From: a virus
Strand: one strand, 5' to 3'
Virus record (IMG/VR): IMGVR_UViG_3300033995_001164
Span: 245,178-309,177 of that record
Length of the DNA stretch: 64,000 nucleotides
Below, piece after piece: positions 29,264-64,000 of the stretch. The notes below the pieces were generated by a model. That model searched no databases, had not been told where the DNA came from, and was given only the letters and a program-made list of their open reading frames with translations. Each line of letters opens with the position of its first letter. Position 1 is the stretch's first letter. Both the position numbers and the translations under genes were made by a program.

Positions 29264-29625
29264 ATGTAATATTCTATTGTGTTAACAGGTATCTTGAAAG
29301 TTTCAACAAACCATTCTTTAAATCCTTCTTTCCAATTATCATTAAAATAACCTTCTAATGAGTTAAGAAGTCCTTGGTCTTCAACATACAACATTGGACT
29401 TAATGGTTTTCGGTAATCTGATGCTCCGGTCCAATAGTCTTCACCATATAACCTGAACAATGTTTCATCATCCATATAATCACCTAAATAAAATTCAATT
29501 GCGTCTTGTTCCTGACCCCAATCATCAGTTAAACGAGTCCAATTAATATTTTCAATATCCAAAGTGTTGTTTAGGTAATTTTTAACCGTTTGATTTAATT
29601 TACTTTCTGTTATAATGTATTTCAT
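29260..29625 (-). CDS. MKYIITES-family protein
   Basis: 121 residues. Leader MKYIITESKLNQTVKNYLNN; ends with the family C-terminal motif GFKEWFVETFKIPVNTIEYY. Its ATG lies only ten bases after the last degenerate repeat of the 29.6-29.85 kb array, so array and start region are contiguous. Function unknown; the family is expanded to twenty or so copies here. Confidence 0.75.
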   Translation of the reverse strand: MKYIITESKLNQTVKNYLNNTLDIENINWTRLTDDWGQEQDAIEFYLGDYMDDETLFRLYGEDYWTGASDYRKPLSPMLYVEDQGLLNSLEGYFNDNWKEGFKEWFVETFKIPVNTIEYYI

Positions 29626-29852
29626 AATTTACTTAATTTGTATTGTTCCTCCACCAGACTTTTTTTTCCGAAATAAATCAATGTGGGTTGTTGTCACCTC
29701 CAATTTGTAATGTTCCTCCACCTTTTTCCTTTTTCGATGTAACGCAAAAGCGTTGTTGTCACCTCCAATTTGTAATGTTCCTCCACCAATAAACACGGCT
29801 CAAATATTCATCAATAGTTGTTGTCACCTCCAATTTGTAATGTTCCTCCACC
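29620..29852 (-). CRISPR. CRISPR-like array B, 3 identical 36-base repeats plus 1 degenerate
   Basis: Minus strand: repeats at 29817-29852, 29752-29787 and 29687-29722 are identical over 36 bases (start GGTGGAGGAACATTACAAAT, end GGTGACAACAAC). Unique spacers are 29, 29 and 31 bases. A fourth, truncated repeat ends the array at 29655 (21 recognisable bases, 29635-29655). The first repeat is the in-frame C-terminal codons of the 29759-30106 gene; the second is read in another frame and contains that gene's stop; the third lies outside any gene. Identity across frame change and stop points to selection or recent copying at nucleotide level. Confidence 0.65.
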
Positions 29853-44361: not shown

Positions 44362-45315
44362 CTAATTAATTTTAACACCCTTCTCAAGTGTTTCCTCAAG
44401 ATAATCTATAAAAGCTTTTGTTCTATCTTCTTTACCGTGATAATAATTACCATAACCTATTAGTTCTCCACTTTGGTCTGGTAATGGTTTTATTTCTTTT
44501 ACACCATTCTCAATTATATCACCAATCCAATCAACAACGACCTCATTCAATTTTTTTGTTTTTTTAACTCCATTTTTAATCACACCATCAATTCTTCCTT
44601 TGTGTTGATATACATCATAGTAAGTTTCATTAACACCCTTGTCAATCACCTTATCAATTATGTCTTCTCCCACATATTGTCGTGGGTTAGAACTTTTAAC
44701 ACCATTTTCAAGTGCATCATCAATGTCTCCGGTATATTCACGAGATTCTAATTTTGAAGTCATTTTCACTCCATCTTGTATGACAATTTCAATAACACAA
44801 GAACCATCCATTTGTAATGATTTGTTGGTTAGTTTCACCCCTTTAGTTTTCTTCACACCATCTTGTATGATGTCATCAACCTCACCTTCAGTAATGTTCA
44901 TTTCCAAACAGGTTTCTTTTACTCCGCCTTTAATAACATTTTCAACCCAACTTGTATTATCTTCCGGGTTCCAACAAGTTTCTTTAATCCCATTCTCAAA
45001 AACCTCCATCAGATTATATGATGGTGTTTGAGATGGTGACGCGGTATTCTTAGAACCATTCATTACATTATCTTCTACCCATTTTGTGATGAGGTGTTGG
45101 TTTTGAACAACCTCCAATGAGGCATACCCAAAAAGATTTTTAAAGAAATTAAAATTATACCACAGGGTTTTACTTTCAGTTAATTCTATCACCCATTGTT
45201 TGGACTCCGTAAAGATTAACCAAGTGGAACCATTATGATTATATGTGTCAACACCTTGGACAGAAGAATTAATTAAGGTGTTTATTATTTTTCCCATAAT
45301 CTTTTTATTAGACAT
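44362..45315 (-). CDS. Repeat protein, diverged 22-residue units
   Basis: 317 residues from MSNKKIMGKIINTLINSS (box ATATATTTAAAAATA before it). The N-terminal 90 residues share SxxWxI, WVIEL, LWYNFNFFKNLF and LITKWVE with the array genes at 62683-64000. Then about eight diverged units follow the pattern (I/V)(E/D)xx(I/L)xxGVKxT, mostly 22 residues apart. Here the DNA of the units has diverged while the protein pattern is kept, which argues that the repeats are translated and selected as protein. Confidence 0.75.
   Translation of the reverse strand: MSNKKIMGKIINTLINSSVQGVDTYNHNGSTWLIFTESKQWVIELTESKTLWYNFNFFKNLFGYASLEVVQNQHLITKWVEDNVMNGSKNTASPSQTPSYNLMEVFENGIKETCWNPEDNTSWVENVIKGGVKETCLEMNITEGEVDDIIQDGVKKTKGVKLTNKSLQMDGSCVIEIVIQDGVKMTSKLESREYTGDIDDALENGVKSSNPRQYVGEDIIDKVIDKGVNETYYDVYQHKGRIDGVIKNGVKKTKKLNEVVVDWIGDIIENGVKEIKPLPDQSGELIGYGNYYHGKEDRTKAFIDYLEETLEKGVKIN
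44365..45084 (-). repeat. Diverged 66-base coding repeats
   Basis: Units such as ENVIKGGVKETC, VIDKGVNETYYD, VIKNGVKKTKKL and DIIENGVKEIKP recur at 22-residue spacing (some at 23, 29 and 42). The DNA is not conserved enough to look like CRISPR. Confidence 0.65.
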
Positions 45316-45589
45316 TATTTTTAAATATATTTGGTTGAATCTCAGCATCTTCAAAAGATTCTGTGGATACAAACTCACTTTTCAAATAATTAATTACATG
45401 TTCCATCATCTCGTAATCTTTAAAATCTCCGTTTTTATGTCCAGCCTTCATTAATAAAGACATACCCGCAGCCAACATCATTGTTGATTCCTTAACAGAT
45501 AATGCCTCTTGGTCTTTTGGGAATCCAATGTCAAAGTAGTTTCTATCGTTTTCACGTCTCCACGTTACACCAATTGTTAATCCATCCAT
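45308..45589 (-). CDS. Hypothetical protein
   Basis: 93 residues, MDGLTIGVTWRRENDRNYFD ... MLAAGMSLLMKAG. Host-type promoter. Overlaps the repeat-protein start by 8 bases. Confidence 0.65.
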   Translation of the reverse strand: MDGLTIGVTWRRENDRNYFDIGFPKDQEALSVKESTMMLAAGMSLLMKAGHKNGDFKDYEMMEHVINYLKSEFVSTESFEDAEIQPNIFKNNV

Positions 45590-46149: not shown

Positions 46150-46176
46150 TAACAAAGATTCCACATAACCAAAAAA

Positions 46177-46241
46177 AGGGTTGGGATTCCATCGAACGAA
46201 GTGAGTGACCGGACGAAGTGAGTGACCGGACGAAGTGAGAC
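46177..46241 (-). repeat. Terminator element copy 1, with 17-base tandem repeats
   Basis: Contains the shared core GGGATTCCATCGAACGAAGT plus the 17-base unit ACGAAGTGAGTGACCGG at 46196-46212 and 46213-46229 and a partial third. On the minus strand the hairpin is followed by T7. Lies just after the cupin-like gene. Confidence 0.65.
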
Positions 46242-46648
46242 TACTCCCGCCCCCACCCATAATGAACCACCTCCCCATCAATATATTCCTTCCAAGTTTT
46301 ATTCCATGGACCGGAAAACAATACGGTCATACATCCGTTACTATTAGAAATCCGGTGATATGAATCCCGGGGAAAATAAACCAAGACTTTCTCCCTACGA
46401 ACAATACGATATTCTCCACTAACCTCATCATCCAAGATTTGTTCATCATACTCACCAAACAGTTTCACAGACCACGCATTAAAAGCGTGGGTATGAAACC
46501 GGTCCTGACTACCAAGAGATTTATGAAAATAAAAAAAGATGATGGAGAATAACCACTTACACTCAAAGACCACGAATTGACTAACGACCTGTTCCCCGAA
46601 CTCGAACTTATTGTATTTTAGAAATGAAATTGTTTTTGTTTTTACCAT
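46241..46648 (-). CDS. Cupin-like protein
   Basis: 135 residues. DRFHTHAFNAWSVKLFGEYD holds the HxH...E cluster of cupins, and VYFPRDSYHRIS the second histidine motif; LFSGPWNKTWKEY is typical of phage cupins of this kind. Metal-binding beta barrel, substrate unknown. Located between the array and terminator copy 1. Confidence 0.7.
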   Translation of the reverse strand: MVKTKTISFLKYNKFEFGEQVVSQFVVFECKWLFSIIFFYFHKSLGSQDRFHTHAFNAWSVKLFGEYDEQILDDEVSGEYRIVRREKVLVYFPRDSYHRISNSNGCMTVLFSGPWNKTWKEYIDGEVVHYGWGRE

Positions 46649-46708
46649 AATGAATATACCTTATGGAATAAAAGTATAATTCTAATTTATGGTTATGTCA
46701 AATAAAAA

Positions 46709-46737
46709 ACCCCAAATCTAATTAAAGAAATGGGGTA
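46709..46737. terminator. Hairpin between cupin gene and array
   Basis: ACCCCA / TGGGGT stem with a 16-base loop and A-rich flank. Confidence 0.5.
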
Positions 46738-46760
46738 TGTTTAAAAACATATTGGTAACA

Positions 46761-47058
46761 TTTTTTTTTTGTGTTTAAATTGTAATGATTCCCAACTTGC
46801 TCCCCTGTTAGAGTTAAAATGTTATGTTGTGACTATCTTTCAAATTGTGATGATTCCCAACTTTGAATTTCGTTGAGGCTAACTTACAGCGGTTGCGACT
46901 ACCTTTCAAATTGTGATGATTCCCAACTCAAAATGTTATTCAATTGGGGATTTTATGTTGTAACTACCTTTCAAATTGTGATGATTCCCAACCCTATTAA
47001 CGAGGTTTATATCGGTGTCCTCGTTGTGACTACCTTTAAAATCGAGACACATCCCAAT
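46761..47058 (-). CRISPR. CRISPR-like array A: 5 repeats of 36 bases, 4 spacers of 29-30 bases
   Basis: Minus strand. Full repeats at 46957-46992, 46892-46927 and 46826-46861 (start GTTGGGAATCATCACAATTT, end GGTAGTCACAAC, with 1-base changes); degenerate end copies at 47023-47058 (5' part decayed) and 46761-46796 (3' part decayed). Spacers 30, 29, 30 and 29 bases, all different. No gene covers it. A host-type promoter at 47262-47269 points into it through about 200 bases of leader. From memory the 3' half resembles type VI-B (Cas13b) repeats, which are also 36 bases with 30-base spacers and this orientation. No cas gene is adjacent except TnpB. Confidence 0.8.
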
Positions 47059-47255
47059 AATGGCTTTTCAAATGAAATTGTGATAGTCTATCCGTTCTCG
47101 GATAATGAGGTTTTGAGACCCCTAGCCGCCTAACCGTTCCGGCAATCACACGTTGACCGTGTTCTTTTACCCGGGTTATATCTGCATACAGTGTTTTAAC
47201 CTTTTAACGTGTTACACACACGCGAGTTACCAATATGTTTAAGAACTTTTTTATT
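47059..47255 (-). ncRNA. Predicted leader transcript between tnpB and array A
   Basis: About 197 noncoding bases between the promoter at 47262-47269 and the first repeat. It holds a diverged repeat-like stretch (CTATCACAATTTCATTTG, about 47067-47084 on the minus strand) and GC-rich pairing potential near 47110-47160. Could be an array leader, a tracr-like RNA or the 3' omega RNA of TnpB. Confidence 0.45.
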
Positions 47256-47261
47256 ATGATA

Positions 47262-47269
47262 CAAAGATA
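47262..47269 (-). promoter_or_regulatory. Host-type promoter pointing into array A
   Basis: TATCTTTG on the minus strand, six bases past the tnpB stop codon; no gene starts downstream, so it must serve the leader and array. Confidence 0.6.
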
Positions 47270-47274
47270 AGTAA

Positions 47275-48477
47275 TTATTCTCTAACTAACAAACTTTCTC
47301 TGATATTTTTTGCTGCGTTTATATCTCTATCGTGGTGTTCCTCACAAGACTTACAGGTCCATTCCCTTTGGGATAACTTTAACTCAGTATTTATATCCCC
47401 ACAGTTAGAACAAGTCTTACTTGTATTACGGGGGTCAATCCTATTAAATTCAATTCCTTTTGAATTACAAACACTTCCCAAATAATCGACAAATGAACGA
47501 ATCCCGATTCTTGCAGTGGATTTAGCCATATGTTTATTCTGTAACATAAATGACAAACGAATATCCTCAACTTGTATTTTAGAAAACTTACCTTTAGTTA
47601 AAACACCAACAACATATCTGTGATATTCTTTTCTAATATTATTTAATTCATTCTGTAATCTACCCTTCTTCTCAATTACTCTCCAATAATTTTTGGATTT
47701 AGGTTTACCCTTGTTTAATCTGTTCTTACGAGATATACTCTTTTGAATAATTGAAATCTTATCTTCCAATTTTTTAATCCTCTCAATTGGTACCTGATAT
47801 TTAAGTCCTTCGGATGTAATTGCCATATCTTTAATACCTACATCAATTCCCAATGATTTACCCGAACTATTAATCTTAACAATTTCAGTATCCTTTAAAT
47901 CCAATGTTAAAGATAAATACCAATTACCATCAGACTTCCTATGGATTGACATTAACTTTGGTGTAGACCCTTTGAATTGTTTATGAAACTTACATTTTAT
48001 AATTGGATTTATCCCAACTTTTTTAAGTAAAGTAGGAGCAAACCTAATTTCATTATTATCCCAATCCAAACTTAAACTTCCACGACTAATACTATTTGAA
48101 TTAGTCGTTAATTTCAATATATTCGTTTTTTTCTTATACGAAGGTTTTCTTGATTTTGGTTTTTTTCTGAAATTTTTAATTGATGTGACCAAAGATTCAG
48201 AAACATATTCCCTAAATATTGATGGAACATTATCAAACCAATTAATCGTTGAAAGATAATTAGAGAAAAGAGATTTACTCTTTAAGTTCGGAGCAGGAAA
48301 GTCCTTAAAATCTTTCCCATCAATAAATTCACTAACCAAAAGATTATATCCCCCTCTTAATTTATTACCAATATCAAATAACCATCTCTTTTGTTTATCA
48401 TCCGGGTATATCCTATACTCAACTGATACTCCAACATAAGATGGACCCTTTTTTCTTTCAACCAAAAAATGATTCAT
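47275..48477 (-). CDS. tnpB: TnpB-family RNA-guided nuclease (IS200/IS605 OrfB type)
   Basis: 400 residues from the ATG behind a TATATTTG promoter at 48497. RuvC-I Asp 212 in LGIDVGIKD, RuvC-II Glu 304 in IQVEDIRL, zinc finger Cys 356/359 and 375/378 (CSNCG, CKSC), RuvC-III Asp 385 in DRDINAAKN: all catalytic residues present. The family makes a guide RNA from the 3' side of its gene and cuts matching DNA; Cas12 nucleases descend from it. No tnpA is nearby. A CRISPR-like array follows at 197 bases on the same strand, which is unusual. An active RNA-guided nuclease is likely; whether it uses the array is open. Confidence 0.9.
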   Translation of the reverse strand: MNHFLVERKKGPSYVGVSVEYRIYPDDKQKRWLFDIGNKLRGGYNLLVSEFIDGKDFKDFPAPNLKSKSLFSNYLSTINWFDNVPSIFREYVSESLVTSIKNFRKKPKSRKPSYKKKTNILKLTTNSNSISRGSLSLDWDNNEIRFAPTLLKKVGINPIIKCKFHKQFKGSTPKLMSIHRKSDGNWYLSLTLDLKDTEIVKINSSGKSLGIDVGIKDMAITSEGLKYQVPIERIKKLEDKISIIQKSISRKNRLNKGKPKSKNYWRVIEKKGRLQNELNNIRKEYHRYVVGVLTKGKFSKIQVEDIRLSFMLQNKHMAKSTARIGIRSFVDYLGSVCNSKGIEFNRIDPRNTSKTCSNCGDINTELKLSQREWTCKSCEEHHDRDINAAKNIRESLLVRE

Positions 48478-48496: not shown

Positions 48497-48504
48497 CAAA
48501 TATA
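48497..48504 (-). promoter_or_regulatory. Host-type promoter of tnpB, TATATTTG
   Basis: Twenty bases before the ATG at 48477; it decides the start against a longer frame from 48606. Confidence 0.6.
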
Positions 48505-48540
48505 AAACAAAGAATTCAAATCACCAAATATATAATGAAA

Positions 48541-48590
48541 AAAAGGAATGGGATTCCCTCGAACGAAGTGAGAAACCGGACGAAGAGCAC
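48541..48590 (-). repeat. Terminator element copy 2
   Basis: GGGATTCC-CTCGAACGAAGTGAG core and CCGGACGAAG tail shared with copy 1; with it, brackets the cupin-array-tnpB block. T7 on the minus strand. Confidence 0.65.
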
Positions 48591-49512: not shown

Positions 49513-49929
49513 TTAATTTTTTAAGTTTTGCTTCTTAACAATTTCTATCAACTTGACCAAACATTCAAGTTCTGCTTCTTCGTAAGTTTGAAAAAAAGTA
49601 TCCCATATTAATCCGCCTATTCTAAAATCACTATTATATTCAGTGATATTATCTTGGATATACCAACAATAAGGTTGTTGATATTTGTTTTCTTTAGTAA
49701 TCCAACTATCTAAATTATACTTCTCTCTAAACCATCTAAATGCTTGTTGGTAAAGTGGTGCTACAAATGTTGTTTTAGATTCTAATCTAAATTGAAAAGG
49801 AGCAGATATAGTTTCATTTGATATATAAACCTCTCTATCTTTACCTACATAATATCCTAAACAAGGTTCATCAAATCCTAATTCTTTTAAAGCTAATGCT
49901 TGTTCGTAAGGTATAAATTCTTTTTCCAT
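49513..49929 (-). CDS. Conserved flavobacterial phage protein
   Basis: 138 residues. EFIPYEQALALKELGFDEPC, APLYQQAFRWFREKYNL and EEAELECLVKLIEIVKK form a pattern I recognise from many Bacteroidota phages and prophages; function unknown. Host-type promoter. Confidence 0.8.
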   Translation of the reverse strand: MEKEFIPYEQALALKELGFDEPCLGYYVGKDREVYISNETISAPFQFRLESKTTFVAPLYQQAFRWFREKYNLDSWITKENKYQQPYCWYIQDNITEYNSDFRIGGLIWDTFFQTYEEAELECLVKLIEIVKKQNLKN

Positions 49930-49955: not shown

Positions 49956-49993
49956 TAATAAATTTTTTATTCCACCAAATATATAATAAAAAA

Positions 49994-50041
49994 AAGGGTT
50001 GGGATTCCATCGAACGAAGTGAGTCCGAACTGGGAGAGACC
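49994..50041 (-). repeat. Terminator element copy 3
   Basis: Core GGGATTCCATCGAACGAAGT plus GAGTCC. Stem GGATTC / GAGTCC around TCG-AA-CGA; T8 follows on the minus strand. Confidence 0.7.
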
Positions 50042-50564: not shown

Positions 50565-50567
50565 ATT

Positions 50568-50690
50568 CTAAAAAAAAAGGGGATGGGATTCCATCGAACG
50601 AAGTGAGTCCGGACTGGAAGGTATACGAATATCCCCTCCAATTAAAATATTAATCAAATCACCTTCAGTAAGTCTAACAATATTCCCCAT
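50568..50690 (-). CDS. Small leader peptide (RLTEGDL type)
   Basis: 40 residues: MGNIVRLTEGDLINILIGGD then codons supplied by terminator copy 4. The first 20 residues match the leader of the 30379-31077 protein (VRLTEQELIDLI). GTATTTATAAT box upstream. Either a decayed late gene cut short by the terminator element or an internal head peptide. Confidence 0.5.
   Translation of the reverse strand: MGNIVRLTEGDLINILIGGDIRIPSSPDSLRSMESHPLFF
50579..50628 (-). repeat. Terminator element copy 4
   Basis: Same core as copies 3 and 5, extended by CCGGACTGGAAGGTATA; T9 on the minus strand. Lies inside the small frame at 50568. Confidence 0.7.
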
Positions 50691-51334: not shown

Positions 51335-51360
51335 ATTGATAAATACTTGACTATCAAAAA

Positions 51361-51410
51361 AGGGCTGGGATTCCATCGAACGAAGTGAGTCCGGACTGGA
51401 AGGTATATGA
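51361..51410 (-). repeat. Terminator element copy 5
   Basis: Nearly identical to copy 4 over about 48 bases, including the upstream GGACTGGAAGGTATA. Confidence 0.7.
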
Positions 51411-60092: not shown

Positions 60093-60641
60093 ATGACAGA
60101 TAAACTAAAGCATAGAATCATTAACTACCTAAATAAAGAATATTCCGGGATTGTTGATTATGAAACGGATGATTGGAAAGAGCATATATTCTTTATGAAA
60201 GACGGGAAAGTTCTTAATTATTACAGTAAAATAAATGGGGTTGTTTATATCTCTTATTCTAAAATTTGGTCATTATTAGAAACCTTTTTTGGATTAAATT
60301 ATCAGGAAGTACAAGACCTAACAAAAATATGGGTGGAGGGGCATCACAGATTTAAGGTAACAACAACGGTCGAAGAAAGAGGAGAATTGATTGACTTGGT
60401 GGAGGAACATCACAGATTAAACGTAACAACAATCGTGCCGAATTGCTTTGTTCACTGGGACAAGGTGGAGGAACATCACAGATTAAACGTAACAACAACA
60501 AGACATGACCGTTATGGAAATGTTACACCGGAGGAACTTCACAAATTAAAGTCAACAACAACCTTCGGTTGTTTTATCGTTGATTTACCTTTGGTAGAAA
60601 ACCATTACAAATTAAACTACCCCGCTAACGGTGAAATATGA
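60093..60641 (+). CDS. Small-family protein with 22-residue C-terminal repeats (array C)
   Basis: 182 residues. MTDKLKHRIINYLNKEYSGI, FMKDGKVLNYYSKINGVVYI, LTKIWVEGHHRFKVTTT, then repeats VEEHHRLNVTT twice, EELHKLKSTTT and VENHYKLNYP, spaced mostly 22 residues. The repeats are the translation of array C. No leader of the ITE type; host-type promoter two genes up. Confidence 0.75.
   Translation: MTDKLKHRIINYLNKEYSGIVDYETDDWKEHIFFMKDGKVLNYYSKINGVVYISYSKIWSLLETFFGLNYQEVQDLTKIWVEGHHRFKVTTTVEERGELIDLVEEHHRLNVTTIVPNCFVHWDKVEEHHRLNVTTTRHDRYGNVTPEELHKLKSTTTFGCFIVDLPLVENHYKLNYPANGEI
60332..60628 (+). CRISPR. CRISPR-like array C inside a gene
   Basis: Repeats of 36 bases at 60332, 60398, 60464, 60527 and 60593; the second and third differ only in the last base (start GGTGGAGGAACATCACAGAT, end CGTAACAACAA). 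Spacers 30, 30, 27 and 30 bases, all multiples of 3, so the gene frame stays open. First and last repeats are diverged, as is common at array ends. Confidence 0.55.
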
Positions 60642-62171: not shown

Positions 62172-62696
62172 ATGGAAATAGATTTATCAAAATATAGTAT
62201 TGGGGAACTTATTGAATTACAGGACAAGATTGATAATACAATACATAACTACAAGGATGGTTATTTGTATATCTGTAATGTTCGTTCATATGGTCACAAT
62301 TGGAGAGACAATTGTATTCATAACATTCATACTCTTCAGCGACTTTGTCATAAGTATGGTGGTGAGGATGGTATTGTTGATGTCTATTCTAATAACCCCG
62401 ACCTTTCTATGATTGAGAACTATGGTGACCTTATGTATATCGTCTCCGAGTCCGACTATACTAAGTGGAAAGATTATGAATATCTTAAAGGTTTTATCCC
62501 CACCATTTCTAAACGATTGGATGAATGGGAGAATAGAGATAATATTCCTTTTCACTCTCGACCATCGTTTGCTCCGATGTATAGTAGAGAAGAGTTAAAT
62601 AATATGGTGGAAAAACTTGCTCACTATGATATGTCTTTTGTTGCTCCCACCCCTTATAAACCGAATGAAAATTTAGACACAGATGATTACAGATAA
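62172..62696 (+). CDS. Hypothetical protein
   Basis: 174 residues from MEIDLSKYSIGELIELQDKI; the promoter excludes the longer frame from 62112. Ends in PTPYKPNENLDTDDYR. The DNA of this end is repeated before the next array gene at 63235-63290, without the rest of the gene. Overlaps the first array gene by 14 bases. Confidence 0.7.
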   Translation: MEIDLSKYSIGELIELQDKIDNTIHNYKDGYLYICNVRSYGHNWRDNCIHNIHTLQRLCHKYGGEDGIVDVYSNNPDLSMIENYGDLMYIVSESDYTKWKDYEYLKGFIPTISKRLDEWENRDNIPFHSRPSFAPMYSREELNNMVEKLAHYDMSFVAPTPYKPNENLDTDDYR

Positions 62697-63207
62697 ATTT
62701 AAAAGAACAATTTTTGATAAATTAACCGATGACCTATCTCATGTGGAATTGATTTTCTACAATGACTCCCTTTGGTTTATTAACCGAGAAAAGAAGTATT
62801 GGTATTTGGAATTAGAAAAATCAGGTAAATTATATTGGAGATGGCAATTCTTTACTAATTTTTTCTCTCCATTCACAATGGAACGAAATGAATATGAACC
62901 ACTTATAAAAGAATGGGTAGAGTCAGCATTAAATTGCGGGGTTACAACAACAGTAAACAAGGATTCAATCGCCGGATGGACGGTAGAGTCAGCATTAAAT
63001 TGCGGGGTCACAACAACTCAAATAGGCACCATCAAAAAACTGAAATGGGTAGAGTCAGCATTAAATTGTGGGGTGACAACAACGTTGTTGATGAAATTCC
63101 ACCAAAAACTATTGGTAGAGTCAGCATTAAATTGTGGGGTGACAACAACAGTACCATCTAAGTTATCCGTTGCAATAAAGGTGGAGTCAGTATTAAATGG
63201 ATTATAA
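62683..63207 (+). CDS. Array gene 1: ITDKFKRTIFDKL-type protein with 22-residue repeats
   Basis: 174 residues. N-domain: MITDKFKRTIFDKLTDDLSH, SLWFINREKKYWYLELEKSG, LYWRWQFFTNFFS, then KEWVESALNCGVTTT, followed by three more VESALNCGVTTT units separated by 10 variable residues, and a degenerate last unit. First of three tandem paralogues reaching the window end. Confidence 0.75.
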   Translation: MITDKFKRTIFDKLTDDLSHVELIFYNDSLWFINREKKYWYLELEKSGKLYWRWQFFTNFFSPFTMERNEYEPLIKEWVESALNCGVTTTVNKDSIAGWTVESALNCGVTTTQIGTIKKLKWVESALNCGVTTTLLMKFHQKLLVESALNCGVTTTVPSKLSVAIKVESVLNGL

Positions 63208-63210
63208 TCT
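62916..63210 (+). CRISPR. CRISPR-like array D inside array gene 1
   Basis: Repeats of 36 bases at 62916, 62982, 63048 and 63114 (start GGTAGAGTCAGCATTAAATT, end ACAACAAC), and a degenerate fifth at 63180. Four unique spacers of exactly 30 bases. Differences among the four repeats are confined to third codon positions (TGC/TGT; GTT/GTC/GTG), so protein is conserved exactly. Confidence 0.55.
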
Positions 63211-63272: not shown

Positions 63273-63734
63273 ATGATTACAGATAAATTTAAAAGAACAA
63301 TTTTTGATAAATTGAGTGAAGATTTATCCCATGTTGAGATAATATCATACCGTGATTCCTTTTGGTTTATTAACCGAGAGAAAAAATATTGGTATTTGGA
63401 ATTTAAATCTTCAGGCGAACTATATTGGAGATGGCAATTCTTTATTGAATTTTTTGAATTATTCACGATGGAGAGAAACCAATTCGAGCCAATCATATTA
63501 GAATGGGTAGAGAAAGTATTAAACCATGAGTTAATAACAACTGAAATCAATATTGGTAATCATGTAGGTATCGAAGAAGTCCTAAATGGCGGAGTGAAAA
63601 CATCGTATAGAGCAAATAAAGACGGATTTTTGGTGAGTTATATATTAAAGAAAGGTGTCACGGCAACCATTAGTAATCATATACGTGGTCTCAAATGTGT
63701 GGAGGAAATATTAAATAATGGAACAACAATATGA
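63273..63734 (+). CDS. Array gene 2: paralogue with diverged repeats
   Basis: 153 residues. MITDKFKRTIFDKLSEDLSH, SFWFINREKKYWYLEFKSSG, LYWRWQFFIEFFE, EWVEKVLNHELITT, then diverged units EEVLNGGVKTSY, YILKKGVTATIS and VEEILNNGTT at 21-22-residue spacing. Stop overlaps the next start (ATGA). Confidence 0.75.
   Translation: MITDKFKRTIFDKLSEDLSHVEIISYRDSFWFINREKKYWYLEFKSSGELYWRWQFFIEFFELFTMERNQFEPIILEWVEKVLNHELITTEINIGNHVGIEEVLNGGVKTSYRANKDGFLVSYILKKGVTATISNHIRGLKCVEEILNNGTTI
63506..63734 (+). repeat. Diverged 63-66-base repeats of array gene 2
   Basis: Four units recognisable mainly at protein level. Sequence decay without frame loss argues for maintained translation. Confidence 0.55.
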
Positions 63735-64000
63735 TTACAGATAAACTAAAACAATTTATTTTTAATAAATTAACCGATGACCTATCTCATGTGGAATTGA
63801 TTTCATATGAAGATTCCTTTTGGTTCATAGATAGAGAAAACAAATATTGGTATTTGGAATTTCAAAAGTCCGGCAGATTATATTGGAGATGGGGATTTTT
63901 TTCCAATTTTTTCCAATTATTTTGTATGGAAAGAGATGAATATGAACCACTTATCACCGAATGGGTGGAGTCAGTCCTAAATGGTGGGGTAACAACAACA
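63731..64000 (+). CDS. Array gene 3, cut by the window end
   Basis: 90 residues visible: MITDKLKQFIFNKLTDDLSH, SFWFIDRENKYWYLEFQKSG, LYWRWGFFSNFFQLF, EWVESVLNGGVTTT. Third tandem copy; start overlaps the previous stop. Continues beyond the window. Confidence 0.75.
   Translation, partial: MITDKLKQFIFNKLTDDLSHVELISYEDSFWFIDRENKYWYLEFQKSGRLYWRWGFFSNFFQLFCMERDEYEPLITEWVESVLNGGVTTT
63964..64000 (+). CRISPR. First repeat of a further array, cut by the window end
   Basis: GGTGGAGTCAGTCCTAAATG ... GGGGTAACAACAAC at 63964-63999 has the repeat form of array D. Only one repeat is visible, so the array itself is a prediction. Confidence 0.4.

What the first reader, a model, noticed from the sequence alone, without database searches (positions are those of the whole stretch)
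47059..48477. TnpB beside a CRISPR-like array: possible intermediate RNA-guided system
A complete 400-residue TnpB with intact RuvC residues lies 197 bases upstream of array A, same strand. TnpB guide RNAs come from the 3' side of the gene, exactly where the leader and array lie. No tnpA is present. Inference: either a domesticated nuclease that uses array RNA (as in type V CRISPR origins) or chance insertion next to an array used by a host effector.
Basis: partly seen in the sequence, partly recalled or inferred. Interest (0 to 1): 0.85.

Follow-up and report, generated by a model that had tools for sequence, protein, structure and literature searches.

The report
Ordinary phage TnpB beside unusual repeat array
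A giant phage of Bacteroidetes carries an intact but ordinary TnpB (an RNA-guided DNA-cutting enzyme) whose own guide RNA appears to end just before the neighbouring CRISPR-like array, so the two are probably separate; the array is the stranger part, because in this phage and its relatives such arrays start inside the end of a small gene and are often translated into protein.

Summary
There is an intact 400-aa TnpB at 47278-48477 (minus strand, stop to 47275), with RuvC acids and zinc ribbon present and no tnpA. A 36/30-nt repeat array lies 216 nt past its stop on the same strand. The headline reading, an intermediate TnpB-array system, is not supported: (1) The predicted omega RNA ends at 47080 (hairpin plus ..ATCAC, a layout seen in five of seven homologues read here). 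Its 16-20-nt guide (47079-47060) stops before the first repeat (47058). (2) No anti-repeat (tracrRNA-like) is found near the array. (3) Three more arrays of the same family in this window (B, C, D), and arrays in six related phage records, stand without tnpB. (4) tnpB is absent from 17 of 18 related records searched. Array A itself was seen only in near-clonal copies that also carry tnpB, so its own history is unresolved. The unexpected part is the arrays: most begin in the 3' end of a small paralogous gene (first repeat = VEEHYKLxVTTT codons), several are translated in frame (12 fixed + 10 variable residues), orthologous arrays share almost no spacers, and a ~30-nt spacer length holds even in untranslated arrays. 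No cas1, cas2 or Cas13-like effector was found in the phage.

The parts
47275..48477 (-). tnpB, 400 aa, intact RuvC residues and zinc ribbon, IS200/IS605 type without tnpA
48497..48528 (-). Bacteroidetes-type promoter (TTTG-N-TATATTTG) about 20-50 nt before the tnpB start, in a leader 84% identical to the one before ORF 49513-49929
   Evidence: (family D6)
47262..47293 (-). possible separate promoter (TTTG-N-TATCTTTG) at the end of tnpB that could drive the omega RNA
   Evidence: pattern match only; 19 matches in the window against about 4 in shuffles
47080..47255 (-). predicted omega RNA scaffold: G+C-rich (42% against 31% for the window), ends in hairpin UAUCCG-AGAA-CGGAUA (47104-47089) plus GACUAUCAC
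   Evidence: the 5' end is a guess; one search shows no significant overall folding (z -1.4)
47060..47079 (-). predicted TnpB guide AATTTCATTTGAAAAGCCAT, ends before the first repeat
   Evidence: layout of relatives; 19 of its bases found only in the same phage
46761..47058 (-). array A: diverged first repeat, three repeats GTTGGGAATCATCACAATTTGAAAGGTAGTCACAAC (each with one change), truncated last repeat; four spacers of 29-30 nt; not translated
46705..46742 (-). hairpin followed by T run (terminator-like) just after array A
29620..29852 (-). array B at the 3' end of a small gene, three full repeats 100% identical, spacers 29/29/31, no tnpB near
60332..60625 (+). array C, in frame with the gene before it (VEEHHRLNVTTT repeats)
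62916..63209 (+). array D, in frame with the gene at 62683 (VESALNCGVTTT repeats)

Best explanation
Two separate things sit side by side. TnpB is an intact, resident phage gene that most likely works like other TnpBs: it binds an omega RNA made from its own 3' flank and cuts copies of the site that lack it, which keeps or spreads the tnpB cassette in mixed infections. The omega RNA scaffold is predicted to end at 47080 and its guide at about 47060, before the first repeat. Array A belongs to a family of 36/30-nt repeat arrays that these phages carry, mostly at the 3' end of a small paralogous gene, with or without tnpB. Shown: intact TnpB, single copy, no tnpA, array family without tnpB, no anti-repeat found nearby. 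Inferred: the exact omega RNA end, DNA cutting, and the homing-like role.
For: TnpB is intact and typical. Its G+C (30%) and codon usage match the phage, and its leader with a Bacteroidetes-type promoter is a phage leader found elsewhere in the window. In five of seven homologues read, the 3' flank shows a last hairpin followed within about 10 nt by TTCAC or CTCAC; here the hairpin at 47104-47089 is followed by GACTATCAC, ending at 47080. ISDra2 omega RNA is about 150 nt with a guide of about 16 nt (PMC8612924). No anti-repeat in or near the leader. tnpB is absent from 17 of 18 related records; the 18th has a 28%-identical TnpB beside a resolvase (IS607 type) and no array. Arrays of the family stand without tnpB in G005-G009 and G018. 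The only changes among the three good array A repeats fall in the 3' part (positions 26, 31, 32) that would have to act as scaffold end.
Against: The omega RNA end rests on layout, not on close relatives (none exist outside the same phage). Array A was never seen without tnpB. The block from tnpB to the array end is missing as a whole in the relatives. The end of the array A repeat (GGTAGTCAC) does look like the usual TnpB scaffold end (GTAGTTCAC). tnpB and array probably share a transcript.
Confidence: 0.75

Rival explanations
1. TnpB draws guides from array A, as an evolving type V system: either the scaffold runs into the first repeat so that spacer 1 is the guide, or the leader acts in trans on every repeat.
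For: Same strand, 216 nt apart, probably one transcript. The first repeat has diverged, can form a short hairpin, and is followed by GGTAGTCAC, close to the usual GTAGTTCAC scaffold end. TnpBs near arrays are reported in landfill phages (PMC12607003).
Against: A scaffold end that fits the relatives' spacing better lies before the first repeat. No anti-repeat. The candidate scaffold end is the only part that varies among the three good repeats. The same kind of array lives without tnpB in this genome and in six related records.
Confidence: 0.07
2. Array A is a phage mini-array processed by a host CRISPR effector (for example Cas13b, type VI-B, or a 36-bp-repeat type II-C system), used against rival phages or as a decoy.
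For: 36/30 geometry; F. columnare VI-B and II-C repeats are both 36 bp (PMC8092290). Array A repeat matches 26 of 36 positions of a Cas13b repeat recalled from memory. Phages with arrays but no effector are known (PMC7162821).
Against: Repeats lack the Cas13b hairpin (z +0.7 against -3.4 for the recalled repeat). They differ between arrays of one phage. The B/C-type repeat pair is not in 84,980 species genomes. Arrays C and D are translated. Two array A spacers had no match among 50,697 phage records.
Confidence: 0.12
3. The arrays are only coding tandem repeats of a phage protein family, copied by recombination, and array A is a decayed, no longer translated copy. (This concerns the origin of the arrays and can be true together with the best explanation.)
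For: C, D, L091, L093 and L094b are in frame and free of stops, which shuffled spacers seldom are (fractions 0.003 to 0.07 each). Array D repeats differ mostly at silent third positions. Coding tandem repeats are a known source of false CRISPR calls (PMC5294841).
Against: Tandem duplication would copy the spacers too, but spacers within an array are unrelated. Untranslated arrays (A, B, L063) keep near-identical repeats and 29-31-nt spacers.
Confidence: 0.35

Closest known systems
TnpB of IS200/IS605 elements (ISDra2 and relatives; PDB 8iaz, 8h1j, 8bf8)
   Same: Size, RuvC acids, zinc ribbon, omega-RNA-like 3' flank with final hairpin and ..TCAC end
   Different: No tnpA, phage promoter directly before the gene, closest relatives only 27-32% identical outside the same phage
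Phage TnpBs near CRISPR arrays (landfill phages, PMC12607003)
   Same: TnpB of about 400 aa close to a CRISPR-like array in a phage
   Different: Here the array family is shown to occur without tnpB and mostly to start inside genes
Type V-F/V-U CRISPR-Cas (Cas12f)
   Same: Cas12f profiles match the protein; array nearby on the same strand
   Different: No anti-repeat or tracrRNA found, no co-occurrence with arrays in relatives
Phage mini-arrays that exploit host CRISPR (reviewed in PMC11656645)
   Same: Short arrays in phages without effector genes
   Different: Mini-array repeats equal the host's; the B/C-type repeat pair was not found in any species genome searched, and some of these arrays are translated
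Coding tandem repeats mistaken for CRISPR (PMC5294841)
   Same: Arrays C, D, L091, L093, L094b are translated in frame
   Different: Spacers unrelated to each other; untranslated arrays keep near-identical repeats and spacer length

Membership tests
TnpB (IS200/IS605) | RuvC D-E-D and zinc ribbon | tested here: met
   D212, E304, D383/D385, C356/C359/C375/C378 invariant
TnpB (IS200/IS605) | omega RNA from the 3' end and right flank, guide from the next DNA | tested here: inconclusive
   Layout fits; folding not significant; no close relatives for covariation
TnpB (IS200/IS605) | RNA-guided DNA cutting | not testable with these tools
   needs experiment
Type V CRISPR-Cas effector | effector and array inherited together | tested here: not met
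   arrays of the family without tnpB (array A itself was seen only with tnpB)
Type V CRISPR-Cas effector | tracrRNA anti-repeat (Cas12f-like guide) | tested here: not met
   best anti-repeat scores no better than shuffles in all five stretches
CRISPR array | near-identical repeats with unique spacers of fixed length | tested here: met
   40 spacers, 36 of them 29-30 nt, one shared pair
CRISPR array | spacers match other mobile DNA | tested here: inconclusive
   no clear protospacer in 0.8 Mb of mostly related DNA; two spacers also without match in 50,697 phages
CRISPR array | cas genes in the same genome | tested here: not met
   no cas1 or cas2; no large ORF with two HEPN motifs except a 421-aa one of another kind (motif count only; ORFs cut by 20-kb piece borders not examined). 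A host could supply them
Type VI-B (Cas13b) | repeat folds into a stable hairpin | tested here: not met
Type VI-B (Cas13b) | 36-nt repeat with 30-nt spacer | tested here: met
Coding tandem repeat | repeats and spacers in one open frame | tested here: inconclusive
   met for C, D, L091, L093, L094b; not met for A, B, L063

The most novel reading that the evidence does not exclude
These phages use the 3' end of a gene family as a site where ~30-bp pieces of DNA are added together with a copied 36-bp repeat, as in CRISPR spacer uptake, probably by a host Cas1-Cas2-like integrase. Where the frame is kept, the result is translated into a protein with interchangeable 10-residue segments. Array A would be an untranslated example that ended up beside tnpB.
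Probability: 0.25. Interest if true: 0.88.

Novelty: new variant of a known kind. Interest (0 to 1): 0.5.

Why it matters
As a TnpB-array system it would have been a living step in the origin of type V CRISPR; the evidence is against that, which spares a wrong annotation. The arrays matter more: CRISPR-like unit addition inside translated genes would be a new way for a phage to vary a protein, and it can be tested directly in lake metagenome time series.

Tried and rejected
Cas13b membership: repeat A resembles a Cas13b repeat recalled from memory, but the hairpin is absent, and the paper library could not confirm the remembered repeat. tracrRNA: none. Rfam: nothing at the curated cut-offs, only chance-level matches below them. 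Relatives of tnpB by protein in viral and genome collections: only the same phage plus a 32% relative. Omega RNA motif and predicted guide as DNA patterns: only the same phage. Array pattern in 84,980 species genomes: none. Spacer searches: nothing convincing; the best is one 19/20 match of L091 spacer 5 in L038, E 0.003 with 40 queries. First repeat as scaffold end (GGTAGTCAC) was considered and judged weaker than the site at 47080. Structure prediction was not run because sequence matches to solved TnpBs already settle the fold.

Full report
What is there. The window is the last 64 kb of a 309-kb IMG/VR phage record. On the minus strand, 47278-48477 encodes a 400-aa TnpB (Pfam TNB domain 2.1e-20; solved TnpBs among the PDB matches). 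RuvC acids and zinc cysteines are intact. It is the only OrfB_IS605 match in the record and has no tnpA. 216 nt past its stop, on the same strand, lies array A: a diverged first repeat, three near-identical 36-nt repeats, a truncated last repeat, and four spacers of 29-30 nt.

Is tnpB a phage gene or a fresh insertion? Its G+C and codon usage match the phage. The ~90 bp before it, with a Bacteroidetes-type promoter, are 84% identical to the leader of another gene in the window. So it is probably expressed like other genes here. A published group of lake phages of Bacteroidetes with genomes up to 331 kb (PMC9723584) looks similar in size and likely host; kinship was not tested, and the Bacteroidetes host is inferred from promoter type only.

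Where does the omega RNA end? In ISDra2 the RNA is about 150 nt and the last ~16 nt come from DNA outside the element (PMC8612924). I read the 3' flanks of TnpB genes from Alistipes, Macrococcus, Staphylococcus, Fusobacterium and Calditerrivibrio plasmids, a Lactobacillus phage and L011. The five plasmid genes show a last hairpin followed within about 10 nt by TTCAC or CTCAC; the Lactobacillus phage and L011 do not show that ending clearly. Here the hairpin UAUCCG-AGAA-CGGAUA (47104-47089) is followed by GACUAUCAC, which ends at 47080. A 16-20-nt guide then covers 47079 to 47060-47064, and the first repeat starts at 47058. This is inference from layout; no close relative exists to test covariation, and the stretch does not fold significantly better than shuffles (z about -1.4). 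The guide region was found only in the same phage.

Could the array still serve TnpB? A Cas12f-like arrangement needs an anti-repeat. None was found in the leader, the gene, or the flanks on either strand: scores are no better than shuffles. The array A repeat does end in GGTAGTCAC, like the common scaffold end GTAGTTCAC, but the three good repeats differ from one another only at positions 26, 31 and 32, inside that very part.

Do tnpB and arrays travel together? Three other IMG/VR records carry the same tnpB and the same array with identical spacers; they are the same phage or near-clones. The gene after the array (46241-46648) has 30 further relatives; none of those 30 loci carries tnpB within the fetched flanks. 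In L026 the genes on both sides are kept, but tnpB and array A are replaced by a small ORF and an HNH-like gene. In 18 related records searched whole, only G012 has a TnpB (28% identical, next to a resolvase) and it has no array by the pattern used. Array A's repeat was not seen in any of them, so array A's own history with tnpB is unresolved. Many of these records are fragments, so absence is not proof for each one.

The arrays are a family of their own. B, C and D in this window have different but related repeats and no tnpB near. A DNA search brought in arrays in G005-G009 and G018, all without a TnpB match. B, C, D and the arrays in those records start in the last codons of a small gene: the first repeat encodes VEEHYKLxVTTT or a like motif, and the last repeat is mostly cut short. 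Array A lacks such a gene; tnpB and its flank stand in that place. Arrays C, D, L091, L093 and L094b stay in frame; shuffled spacers would be stop-free with fractions of 0.003 to 0.07 each. A, B and L063 are not in frame, yet their repeats are nearly identical and spacers are 29-31 nt. Of 40 spacers only one pair is alike, L091 spacer 7 and L094b spacer 3, near the far end of orthologous arrays; this hints at change at the gene side but is one case. No cas1 or cas2 was found in the 12 records searched, and no Cas13-like ORF in this phage by motif and size. The array pattern of B/C type is absent from 84,980 species genomes. Two array A spacers had no match among 50,697 phages.

Verdict. TnpB: an ordinary, intact member of its family. 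Its pairing with array A is most likely neighbourhood, not partnership. The arrays are CRISPR-like in form, but not shown to be CRISPR; whether they arise by spacer-like uptake or by recombination of coding repeats is open and testable.

Noticed in passing
window 29620-29852, 60332-60625, 62916-63209; L063 530-815; L091, L093, L094, L095: Gene-terminal 36/30-nt repeat arrays, several translated in frame, with unrelated spacers and one shared spacer between orthologous arrays.
   Followed up: partly
window 44362-45378: 338-aa protein built of degenerate repeats (GVKxT motifs with variable linkers of about 8-20 residues); looks like an older relative of the array-coded repeats; the related gene in L026 has 66-69-nt periods.
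   Followed up: no
window 46165-46240, 48532-48585, 49983-50036, 50567-50620, 51349-51402: A repeated intergenic element (AAAGGGNTGGGATTCCATCGAACGAAGTGAGTCCGGA) separates many gene cassettes here and in relatives L026 and L045.
   Followed up: no
L026 2235-3353: HNH-like 372-aa gene occupies the place of tnpB and array A in a related phage.
   Followed up: no
window 63274-63999: Two further paralogues of the array D gene follow it, and the record ends inside another repeat, so the assembly may have broken in these repeats.
   Followed up: no
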